In this document: positions 17,849 to 32,060 of the stretch, in pieces
How the letters are laid out: every line of letters starts with the position of its first letter
Position numbering within the stretch: position 1 is the first letter of the stretch
NCBI GenBank assembly: GCA_000998425.1
Contig: LCDG01000010.1
Span: 1 to 32,778, forward strand
DNA length: 32,778 nt
Origin: Candidatus Nomurabacteria bacterium GW2011_GWC2_42_20
GTDB taxonomy: Bacteria > Patescibacteriota > Minisyncoccia > Phycocordibacterales > UBA1550
Direction: 5' to 3'
Notes under the pieces: generated by a model
Databases searched by the model: none
Told to the model about the DNA's origin: nothing
Seen by the model: the letters and a program-made list of their open reading frames with translations, nothing else
Position numbers and translations under genes: made by a program

Positions 17849-18022
17849 AGGAGAGGATGCTTGGCTAAGAACATTTTTACTCGCCGTCGCTCCTAAAAAT
17901 TTCTCAGCCCTGCTCGAGCGACCCATTCTACTGAATGGGTTTCCCCGCTCTCGCTTTCAAATCCTTTCCTGCTCTACAAAAGTTAAATGGCGATACGCTA
18001 ACGCGTACCGCCATTACTTTTG
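17849..18022 (-). repeat. tRNA-Leu-anchored structured element (3'-type)
   Basis: Inverted partial copy of the tRNA-Leu 3' end, 8-bp/4-nt hairpin ACCCATTC-TACT-GAATGGGT (17921-17940), capped stem 17863-17909, direct copy AGGAGAGGAT at 17849-17858. Confidence 0.7.
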
Positions 18023-18106
18023 TGCGCAGGAGAGGATTTGAACCTCCATGCCGGTGAAGGCGCTACCACCTCAAGGTAGTGCGTCTACCAATTTCGCCAC
18101 CTGCGC
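18023..18106 (-). tRNA. tRNA-Leu(GAG)
   Basis: Long-variable-arm tRNA; anticodon stem-loop CTACC-TTGAGGT-GGTAG; acceptor GCGCAGG/CCTGCGC. Confidence 0.95.
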
Positions 18107-20545: not shown

Positions 20546-20632
20546 AATAACTTTATTATACCGTTCTTCGCACAGTATCCATAAAGAAGTGCTAACCTTT
20601 TGGGCCTGCCAAAACAGCTAATCCCCCAATAA
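20546..20632 (-). repeat. tRNA-Val 5'-end duplication element
   Basis: TTATTGGGGGATTAGCTG (20615-20632) duplicates TTATTGGGAGATTAGCTC at the tRNA start, offset 82 bp; hairpin TTTTGG..CCAAAA; TACTGTGCG at +50. Confidence 0.65.
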
Positions 20633-20666
20633 TCCATACTATACCAGATATTGGGAGAAAAACAAT

Positions 20667-20844
20667 GGTGCCCCCACTCGTCTCGGTCCCGAGTTACTAA
20701 GTCGCCAAGCTCCTAAGTACTCGCGACCCCGCCTCATTGTTTTTGATTACAAAAACATATTCCGGCTTTCGATTCCTCGCGCAAGTGAAGCAGTTCACTT
20801 GCTGCGGGGCACCAACAGAAAAATCGCCATCAGGCGATTTTGTT
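20667..20844 (-). repeat. tRNA-Arg(TCT)-anchored structured element (3'-type)
   Basis: Inverted tRNA 3'-end copy interrupted by CAAGTGAA-GCAG-TTCACTTG; helix GCC..GGC; core stem-loop 20685-20728; direct tRNA 3'-end copy GGTGCCCCC at 20667-20675. Confidence 0.75.
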
Positions 20845-20846
20845 GG

Positions 20847-20918
20847 TGCCCCCGCGAGGAATCGAACCTCGAATAACGGCTTAGAAGTCCGCAGTTATAT
20901 CCATTTAACTACAGGGGC
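20847..20918 (-). tRNA. tRNA-Arg(TCT)
   Basis: Acceptor GCCCCTG/CGGGGGC, T-arm CGAGG-TTCGATT-CCTCG, anticodon loop CTTCTAA. Confidence 0.93.
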
Positions 20919-25040: not shown

Positions 25041-25127
25041 GGATAGGTGGCTGAGTGGTCTAAGGCAGCGGTCTTGAAAACCGTCGTCCTCGAAAGTGGA
25101 CCGTGAGTTCGAATCTCACCCTATCCG
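25041..25127 (+). tRNA. tRNA-Ser(TGA)
   Basis: Acceptor GGATAGG/CCTATCC, discriminator G, anticodon loop CTTGAAA, long variable arm. Confidence 0.95.
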
Positions 25128-25183
25128 CAAAAGTAAAAAGTGGTCCGACGTCCGTCGGACCACTTTTTACTTTTGCGGATAGG
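25120..25183 (+). terminator. 31-bp perfect inverted repeat that includes the tRNA-Ser 3' acceptor strand
   Basis: CCTATCCGCAAAAGTAAAAAGTGGTCCGACG-TC-CGTCGGACCACTTTTTACTTTTGCGGATAGG. Confidence 0.8.
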
Positions 25184-31150: not shown

Positions 31151-31226
31151 GCGCCCATAGCTCAGTCGGTAGAGCAGCTCCCTTTTAAGGAGACGGTCGT
31201 AGGTTCGATTCCTACTGGGCGCACCA
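31151..31226 (+). tRNA. tRNA-Lys(TTT), CCA encoded
   Basis: Acceptor GCGCCCA/TGGGCGC + ACCA, anticodon loop CTTTTAA. Confidence 0.96.
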
Positions 31227-31409
31227 GAAACAAAAGGCACGGGTTCTCTCCGTGCCTTTTGTTTCTATTTGCGAACAGAGCAAGCCAACTGCTTGGCTTG
31301 CGTTAGGAATCGAAAGGCGGAACATGTTGCGAAGCAACAGTGAGCCGAGGTCGCGAGTACTTATGAGCGAAGCGAATTAGTAACTCGAGACCGAAACTAC
31401 TGGGCGCAC
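31227..31409 (+). repeat. tRNA-Lys-anchored structured element, unit 1
   Basis: 17-bp hairpin 31226-31266; CAAGCCAA-CTGC-TTGGCTTG 31281-31300; antisense T-arm TAGGAATCGAA; core stem-loop 31349-31392; direct copy CTACTGGGCGCAC 31397-31409. Confidence 0.75.
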
Positions 31410-31634
31410 AACGTAAAGAAAAACAGCACCTGCGTGCTGTTTTTTAGTTGTGCGAGCCGGAGCAATATTTTGCTAGCAAGCAAAATAAGCGAGGCAGGGT
31501 CGTGAAAATTTTGTTTTGACGAAAACAAAATTATTCCTGACCACACGCTAGTCTTGGGCGAGCAGTACTCTGCAATACCATCAAATCAAAATGGATTGTA
31601 TCGGCTAAAAGGAGAGGCGATTTCTACTGGGCGC
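31410..31634 (+). repeat. tRNA-Lys-anchored structured element, diverged tandem unit 2
   Basis: CGCACAAC/GTTGTGCG inverted tRNA end around a terminator-like hairpin; AGCC-GGAGCAAT-[ATTTTGCT-AGCA-AGCAAAAT]-AAGCGAGGC; GGTC..GACC stem; third copy CTACTGGGCGC 31624-31634. Confidence 0.6.
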
Positions 31635-31694: not shown

Positions 31695-32060
31695 TTACTT
31701 CTTGTTTGCTACCCCTTTGCATTTCGGGTTTGCCGGAAACTCCCAGCCGATGTCGCCGTTTTGCATGACGACAAATTTGGCCTCGCACGTTACCGGGCCA
31801 TCTGCGTTTGGTGCTGGGGCATCATCCACGCGGATGTAGTTCCGGCTGATTGAGCCGTCTGCGTTGGGCGTGTAAAGCCCGTCGTGATGAGCCACACAAG
31901 CCTGCCAAGAGGGCTGACCGAGGTGCGGGGCACATTCTTTTGCCGCCACATCGAGGCCGCCTGAACCGGCAACGACGACGTGCTTCGTCGGACCAGCTGC
32001 ATAAGCTGAGCCAGACGACAGACAAACGAATGCCAATACAACTACAAACAACTTTTTCAT
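31695..32060 (-). CDS. Small secreted Cys-containing hypothetical protein
   Basis: Signal peptide MKKLFVVVLAFVCLSSGSAYAA; four mature-region Cys; AAAGGAG SD; promoter upstream. Confidence 0.75.
   Translation of the reverse strand: MKKLFVVVLAFVCLSSGSAYAAGPTKHVVVAGSGGLDVAAKECAPHLGQPSWQACVAHHDGLYTPNADGSISRNYIRVDDAPAPNADGPVTCEAKFVVMQNGDIGWEFPANPKCKGVANKK

What the first reader, a model, noticed from the sequence alone, without database searches (positions are those of the whole stretch)
31212..31634. Three in-line copies of the tRNA-Lys 3' end: tandem insertions at one tRNA
CTACTGGGCGCAC occurs in the tRNA (31212) and at 31397, and CTACTGGGCGC at 31624. Each interval contains the element architecture: a hairpin containing or abutting the tRNA end, an AGCC-GGA..-[8-bp/4-nt hairpin]-..GAGGC-type helix, and a GGTC..GACC stem. 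The second unit is diverged (CGCACAAC/GTTGTGCG arms, A/T-rich GGTC stem). This resembles repeated att-site use, with an older distal unit and a newer proximal unit.
Basis: partly seen in the sequence, partly recalled or inferred. Interest (0 to 1): 0.75.

Follow-up and report, generated by a model that had tools for sequence, protein, structure and literature searches.

The report
Tiny insertion cassettes stacked behind tRNAs
In these ultra-small bacteria, almost gene-less DNA cassettes of about 150-230 bases, each carrying a replacement copy of the gene end it cuts into, have inserted again and again behind tRNA genes, and behind one protein gene, at a scale and with a folded-DNA design we could not match to any described element.

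Summary
The window is from a Parcubacteria genome (Yonathbacteria-like). Behind tRNA-Lys(TTT) lie two units plus a remnant of a third, separated by tRNA-end copies. Related genomes show earlier states: G003 and G013 have the tRNA joined directly to unit 2 (no unit 1), G005 has only the third type, and G009 has none. The 185-bp unit 1 sits exactly between two tRNA-end copies.

The unit body is two covarying hairpins. It recurs in 81 of 99 genomes of the order (up to 36 copies) and 40 of 384 sampled across the phylum. Checked copies lie almost always just 3' of a tRNA or tmRNA, on the same strand.

The decisive case is topA. In 8 of 16 congeners the same element sits at the topA 3' end; topA has received an element-borne tail and the old tail lies displaced beyond it. 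Eight congeners have an empty site. This is site-specific integration with restoration of the target end.

Each unit also carries an inverted copy of its target, so that a single strand can fold as in integron attC or CTX-phage attP sites. G000's only tyrosine recombinase is a single Xer protein. That this enzyme does the work is inferred, not shown.

The parts
31151..31226 (+). tRNA-Lys(TTT), the target; its T-loop (TTCGATTC) and 3' end are the insertion sublocations
31206..31224 (+). tRNA 3' segment carried by the newest unit (X, copy 1): CGATTCCTACTGGGCGCAC
31226..31266 (+). unit 1 terminator-like hairpin (17-bp perfect arms), the only cargo of unit 1
31279..31302 (+). unit 1 hairpin H1 (AGCAAGCCAACTGCTTGGCTTGCG), recurs in related units at the boundary between the T-stem and acceptor complements
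31303..31314 (+). unit 1 inverted copy of the tRNA T-arm (T': TTAGGAATCGAA, near-complement of TTCGATTCCTA)
31314..31392 (+). unit 1 body: two covarying hairpins (H2, H3), model R1 91.9 bits
31397..31409 (+). displaced tRNA end (copy 2), right boundary of the 185-bp unit 1
   Evidence: pre-insertion junction in G003
31410..31446 (+). unit 2 terminator-like hairpin
31447..31454 (+). unit 2 inverted copy of the tRNA 3' end (GTTGTGCG)
31454..31542 (+). unit 2 body (type 2), model R1 65.6 bits; unit 2 is 96% identical in G003 where it abuts the tRNA
31547..31617 (+). remnant (3' part) of a type-3 unit; an intact type-3 unit sits at this locus in G005
31618..31634 (+). oldest displaced tRNA end (copy 3): CGATTTCTACTGGGCGC
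   Evidence: D2
20668..20803 (-). type-1 unit behind tRNA-Arg(TCT) 20844-20918, body 20685-20768 (87.3 bits)
17863..17950 (-). diverged unit body behind tRNA-Leu(GAG) 18022-18106 (29.2 bits), with inverted and direct tRNA-end copies

Best explanation
These are minimal integrative cassettes. A unit consists of X (the 3' end of the target gene from the crossover onward), a short cargo (usually just a terminator hairpin, rarely a gene), an inverted copy of the target (T') and a structured body B of two hairpins. Site-specific recombination at the target (tRNA T-loop, tRNA 3' end, tmRNA end, or the end of topA) joins the host gene to the unit's own X, restoring the gene, and displaces the old end to the far side of B. 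Repeats of this at one gene build a stack with the newest unit next to the gene. Shown: gene-end replacement, empty versus filled sites, stacking, target-matched ends, conserved fold. Inferred: the T'-B-X strand folds into the substrate (like attC or CTX-phage attP), and the recombinase is a tyrosine recombinase supplied in trans, most likely the cell's single Xer protein, because no other was found in G000.
For: topA: in 8 of 16 congeners (G000, G002, G005, G006, G007, G009, G010, G015) a unit follows topA and a displaced topA tail lies beyond it; insert 196-232 bp in the seven measured. Eight have no unit. G007's displaced tail (HKLNKPE*) plus flank is 87% identical to the empty site of G004, while its topA now ends HKLVK*. 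In G000 the two topA tails differ mostly at silent positions (77% identical DNA; both encode TIPERCSNKLCPNHNPHKLEK). Lys locus: pre-insertion state of unit 1 in G003 and G013. 21 of 26 pattern hits have an intact tRNA directly upstream on the same strand; the other 5 are cut by a contig end or masked bases. 98 of 124 body hits lie within 350 nt of an upstream same-strand tRNA or tmRNA. The displaced copy matches its own tRNA best in 51 of 87 first units, a count that includes type-2 units whose copy is too short to tell. Covarying body. Crossover sublocations equal those of tRNA integrases, T-loop and 3' end (PMC1762012; Williams 2002 as cited in PMC4383910). Xer.
Against: No excision circle, read-level polymorphism or enzyme assay is available. 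Units contain no recombinase gene, and the Xer genes are not next to units. The same body occurs behind different tRNA kinds within one genome while T' and X match each tRNA; a plain att exchange would spoil the tRNA when a unit changes target, so some correction, selection or copying step is missing from the model. No dif-like sequence was identified in the body. G010 shows no Xer gene in its (95% complete) assembly although it carries 11 bodies.
Confidence: 0.72

Rival explanations
1. Copying mechanism: units spread by template switching or self-primed DNA synthesis. The terminator hairpin of a displaced strand folds back and copies the tRNA end (making T'), then synthesis jumps to a body elsewhere and back to the target.
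For: Explains why T' and X match whichever tRNA is hit although bodies are shared between tRNA kinds, and why tRNA end, terminator and T' often form one long palindrome (Trp, Ser, Phe).
Against: topA received a foreign tail rather than a copy of its own. The H1 hairpin sits inside T' at a fixed place. Boundaries are sharp at the T-loop, the 3' end and topA C|RAA.
Confidence: 0.15
2. The units are functional RNAs: attenuators in which T' pairs either with the tRNA or with the downstream copy, controlling tRNA maturation or termination.
For: Two conserved covarying hairpins; G.T outnumbers A.C on the sense strand (17 to 4 in the hand-made alignment, 78 to 20 in model-aligned hits), so the folded strand is the tRNA-sense strand.
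Against: A strong terminator lies between gene and body. Presence varies between congeners. The same body follows topA, a protein gene, and displaces its end. Units occur in stacks. Only 3% of pairs are G.T. No Rfam family matches.
Confidence: 0.06
3. Another enzyme moves them: an HUH (Y1/RAYT) transposase, or an RNA-guided IS110-type recombinase with T' as the guide.
For: T' is a guide-like complement spanning the crossover; Y1-type genes are common in the order (66 of 99 genomes); TIGR systems of CPR bacteria show that RNA guides exist there (PMC12045711).
Against: IS110 DEDD transposase absent from G000 and from 89 of 99 relatives. Y1_Tnp not found in G015 (31 bodies), G046 (17), G025 (11) or G003 (7). 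Direct duplications of 10-70 nt with gene-end replacement are not expected of either enzyme (general knowledge).
Confidence: 0.05
4. Ordinary homologous recombination or gene conversion spreads once-formed palindromic repeats; there is no active site-specific mobility.
For: Bodies within one genus resemble each other across tRNA kinds, as concerted evolution would give; these cells are thought to take up DNA (general knowledge).
Against: Precise boundaries at the same sublocation in tens of tRNA kinds, tmRNA and topA across a phylum; stacks of different unit types at one gene.
Confidence: 0.06

Closest known systems
Genomic islands in tRNA/tmRNA genes (Islander type, tyrosine integrase)
   Same: Target gene end restored by an element-borne copy, displaced fragment at the far end, tandem arrays, T-loop and 3'-end sublocations
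   Different: About 150-230 bp, mostly no genes and no integrase; inverted target copy plus a covarying two-hairpin body; many copies per genome at nearly all tRNA kinds
Integron gene cassettes with attC sites
   Same: Topology X-cargo-X'-structured body-X; folded single strand; stacking with newest unit proximal; some units carry one small gene (L102, L143)
   Different: No IntI or attI platform; tRNA, tmRNA and topA ends act as the receiving site; target sequence is not the GTTRRRY box; the favoured folded strand is the tRNA-sense strand, not shown to match the attC bottom strand
IMEX such as CTX phage using host XerC/D
   Same: Element without its own recombinase; inverted att copies that can make a folded single-strand attP; host Xer as likely enzyme
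   Different: Targets are tRNA and gene ends, not dif; no phage genes; no match in phages, plasmids or viral contigs
CIMEs, phage satellites and tycheposons at tRNA genes
   Same: Non-autonomous or cargo-poor elements at tRNA ends mobilised in trans (general knowledge)
   Different: Those are kilobases long and carry genes (general knowledge); here most units are only att structure plus terminator
REP/REPIN palindromes with RAYT
   Same: Short non-autonomous palindromic repeats, a G-N-A-R motif at the foot of a hairpin
   Different: Bound to tRNA ends with target duplication; persists in genomes where no Y1_Tnp was found

Membership tests
tDNA genomic island (Islander) | Intact tDNA plus displaced 3' fragment in the same orientation flanking the element | tested here: met
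tDNA genomic island (Islander) | Element restores the gene end; empty site in relatives | tested here: met
   topA; Lys locus:
tDNA genomic island (Islander) | Integrase gene inside the element | tested here: not met
   units of 150-230 bp have no room for one; G000 has one tyrosine recombinase, not adjacent to a unit
Integron cassette | Receiving site attI with an intI gene | tested here: not met
   only a single Xer-type recombinase in G000; TIGR02249 integron integrase 132 bits, below the cut-off of 265
Integron cassette | Folded attC with R and L boxes and extrahelical bases | tested here: inconclusive
   covarying hairpins and an inverted target copy found; R box GTTRRRY not seen at the junctions; no binding data
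IMEX (Xer-dependent) | Integration at dif by host Xer | tested here: not met
   targets are tRNA, tmRNA and topA ends; Xer use itself not testable here
REP/RAYT elements | Dependence on a Y1 (RAYT) transposase | tested here: not met
   G015, G046, G025, G003 have many bodies and no Y1_Tnp match
IS110 (bridge RNA) elements | DEDD transposase | tested here: not met
   none in G000; 10 of 99 relatives
Known RNA family | Match to an Rfam model | tested here: not met
   only tRNA reaches gathering score

The most novel reading that the evidence does not exclude
An integron-like cassette system of the Parcubacteria in which tRNA, tmRNA and topA gene ends serve as receiving sites, the cassette end is a folded single-stranded att site that carries a complement of its own target, and the cell's single Xer recombinase does the work that IntI does in integrons.
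Probability: 0.4. Interest if true: 0.9.

Novelty: new variant of a known kind. Interest (0 to 1): 0.8.

Why it matters
It gives a concrete gene-exchange and genome-growth mechanism in bacteria thought to be too reduced for many mobile elements, at up to dozens of sites per 0.7-Mb genome. The units are close to the smallest integrative elements one can imagine (att structure plus terminator), so they separate what is needed for site-specific integration from cargo and enzyme. They also raise a testable question: how does an element keep a matching copy of whichever tRNA it enters? Practical side: tRNA 3' ends, terminators and topA tails in these genomes are mosaic, and assemblies break at these stacks.

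Tried and rejected
Rfam, strict and permissive: only the tRNA. Viral contigs, phages, plasmids: no match for unit 1; two further viral-contig scans gave no answer. Y1_Tnp as mover: its distribution does not fit. IS110 as mover: absent from G000. Integrase-bearing autonomous version: the tyrosine recombinase loci found in 12 genomes hold no unit and no tRNA within the stretch fetched. Pfam on cargo ORFs: nothing above cut-off. My first strand parsing of hits was wrong and was redone. The topA query by mistake contained the tail twice; only its genomic matches are used. The motif scan missed the displaced tail of G009, which is visible. Literature searches found no description of these elements, but the library holds only open-access papers.

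Full report
1. What is in the window. tRNA-Lys(TTT) lies at 31151-31226. Copies of its 3' end lie at 31206-31224 (in the tRNA), 31397-31409 and 31618-31634. Unit 1 is the 185 bp between the first two copies: a perfect 17-bp terminator-like hairpin (31226-31266), a hairpin H1 (31279-31302), an inverted copy of the T-arm (TTAGGAATCGAA, 31303-31314) and a body of two hairpins (31314-31392), followed by the displaced tRNA end. Between copies 2 and 3 lie unit 2 (terminator hairpin, inverted tRNA end GTTGTGCG, body 31454-31542, end CACAC) and the 3' remnant of a third unit type (31547-31617). Two more units lie in the window, behind tRNA-Arg(TCT) and tRNA-Leu(GAG).

2. The genome. The genome holding the window (G000, 679 kb, 38 tRNA matches) carries such units behind about a third of its tRNA genes by inspection, including Arg, Trp, Val, Lys, Leu, Tyr and Ile. 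Organism names from exact pattern matches elsewhere are Candidatus Yonathbacteria, Kaiserbacteria and other Parcubacteria; one match is in an assembly labelled Cytophagales.

3. The body is a conserved folded structure. In 30 hand-picked bodies, 19 of 23 pairs have changes on both sides; 97.9% of cells pair, against 78.8% in shuffles and 29-38% with slid partners. Wobble G.T outnumbers A.C on the tRNA-sense strand (17 to 4; 78 to 20 in model-aligned hits, where the model itself favours G.T), which points to the sense strand as the folded one. Folded as DNA, the sense strand is also the more stable in both units tried. G.T is rare (3%), and a terminator precedes the body, so folding as DNA is at least as likely as folding as RNA.

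4. Distribution. With a covariance model of the body, 81 of 99 relatives have at least one copy, up to 36 per genome, and 40 of 384 genomes sampled across the phylum do. In more distant relatives, 14 of 16 loci checked have a tRNA directly upstream on the same strand. Of 124 distinct hits in fetched loci, 98 lie within 350 nt downstream of a same-strand tRNA or tmRNA gene, of more than 30 kinds. Most of the rest are further units of stacks, contig edges, masked stretches, or topA.

5. The ends belong to the target. The displaced copy scores a median of 10 against its own tRNA and 4 against others, and the inverted copy 11 against 5. Own is strictly best in 51 of 87 for the direct copy, the remainder including type-2 units whose copy is only about 5 nt. 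A strict 15-mer test finds an upstream partner for 38 of 124 hits, against 4 of 367 in mismatched controls. Unit-1-like bodies in other genomes sit behind Val, Ser and Arg tRNAs, so bodies are shared while ends differ.

6. The decisive comparison: topA. In G000 a unit sits at the 3' end of topA, and the topA tail occurs a second time beyond it (Pfam). Among 16 congeners, eight have a unit there and eight are empty. In G007 the displaced tail HKLNKPE* and its flank are 87% identical to the empty site of G004, while topA itself now ends HKLVK*. In G009 the displaced tail resembles the empty sites of G003 and G013. The inverted copy follows the proximal allele (ACGAAGAC with GTCTTCGT; ACAAAAAC with GTTTTTGT). 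topA units occur in other families of the order too (loci L133 and L135). This is what site-specific integration with a gene end carried on the element produces.

7. The Lys locus in relatives. G003 and G013: tRNA, unit 2, remnant of type 3, same downstream flank, no unit 1. G005: tRNA and an intact type-3 unit between the same flanks. G010: homologues of units 1 and 2. G002: a unit-1 homologue and two other type-2 units. G009: no unit, in a segment inverted relative to the flanks. The order of events is therefore type 3, then unit 2, then unit 1, each next to the tRNA. Caveats: these are metagenome assemblies; G003 is split over two contigs at the tRNA, and part of the tRNA in G013 is masked.

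8. Sublocations. Type 1 begins at the T-loop (TTC|RA), type 2 at the very 3' end (GC|ACAA), type 3 at the T-loop (GGTT|CGAATC). T-loop and 3' end are known integration sublocations of tRNA integrases; for phage Ms6 strand exchange is placed in the 7-bp T-loop (PMC1762012; PMC4383910).

9. Cargo. Most units hold only a terminator hairpin. L102 has two tandem cassettes of about 0.85-0.9 kb behind tRNA-Gly, each with one small ORF and each ending in an inverted copy, a structured end and a tRNA end. L143 has a 1.4-kb unit with a 163-aa ORF. None of these proteins has a confident Pfam match.

10. Mechanism. The topology X-cargo-X'-body-X is that of an integron cassette, and the inverted att copies recall the folded attP of CTX phage (PMC5357621; attC: PMC3053210). 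Of the eleven genus genomes searched, seven (G000 among them) have exactly one tyrosine recombinase match, two have two, one has four, and G010 has none. In G000 it is a 332-aa Xer protein above the cut-off of NF040815 (XerA/integron integrase). Hence the lone Xer is the best candidate, by exclusion. IS110 and Y1 transposases do not fit. Not explained: how a unit keeps copies that match each new tRNA. Options are selection for intact tRNAs after exchange between like tRNAs, conversion within the palindrome, or a copying step.

11. Verdict. The system works like tDNA integration and like integron cassettes, but it is a member of neither by the tests made: there is no integrase in the unit and no IntI or attI. 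I file it as a new variant of a known kind.

Noticed in passing
window about 20560-20640 (-), upstream of tRNA-Val(TAC): A 5' tRNA fragment with a similar context (TTGGGGGATTAGCTGTTTTGGCAGGCCC...) precedes the intact tRNA start. Similar 5' fragments with GTTTTGGTAGG occur before tRNA-Lys(CTT) in G015 and G002 and before tRNA-Thr(GGT) in G000: possibly another element family using tRNA 5' ends.
   Followed up: no
G009, G002, G010 tRNA-Lys loci (L075, L072, L074): The tRNA with its array is inverted relative to the DoxX-like gene or the downstream flank, compared with G000, G005 and G013; recombination between inverted tRNA-end copies could be the cause.
   Followed up: partly
L145 2300-2590 (G000:C7): Two units whose inverted copy matches a tmRNA end (GTGGAGATG..TGGGGGAATCGAA), with no tmRNA found upstream: an orphan array or a lost or moved tmRNA.
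   Followed up: partly
L113 6280-6620 and G013 (L068 840-880): Hairpin inserts nested inside unit bodies, including a motif GACGAATCAGCAGATTTGTGTCTTGGACT that recurs in several hosts.
   Followed up: no
window 31695-32060 (-): A 121-aa protein with a signal-like start and no Pfam match sits between the array and the conserved flank in G000; it was not seen in the G005, G003 and G013 loci.
   Followed up: partly
tRNA-Ser(TGA) window 25041-25128; tRNA-Trp in L027: The terminator palindrome extends perfectly through the tRNA 3' end, and at Ser(TGA) without any unit body: perhaps a scar or a precursor of units.
   Followed up: no
G003:C48, G003:C21, G010:C12, G002:C16 ends: Contigs of several relatives break at or near the tRNA-Lys array, so such stacks are under-represented in assemblies.
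   Followed up: no
G015:C48 752-3119: Three tyrosine recombinase genes in a row (a RIT-like trio), not linked to units.
   Followed up: no
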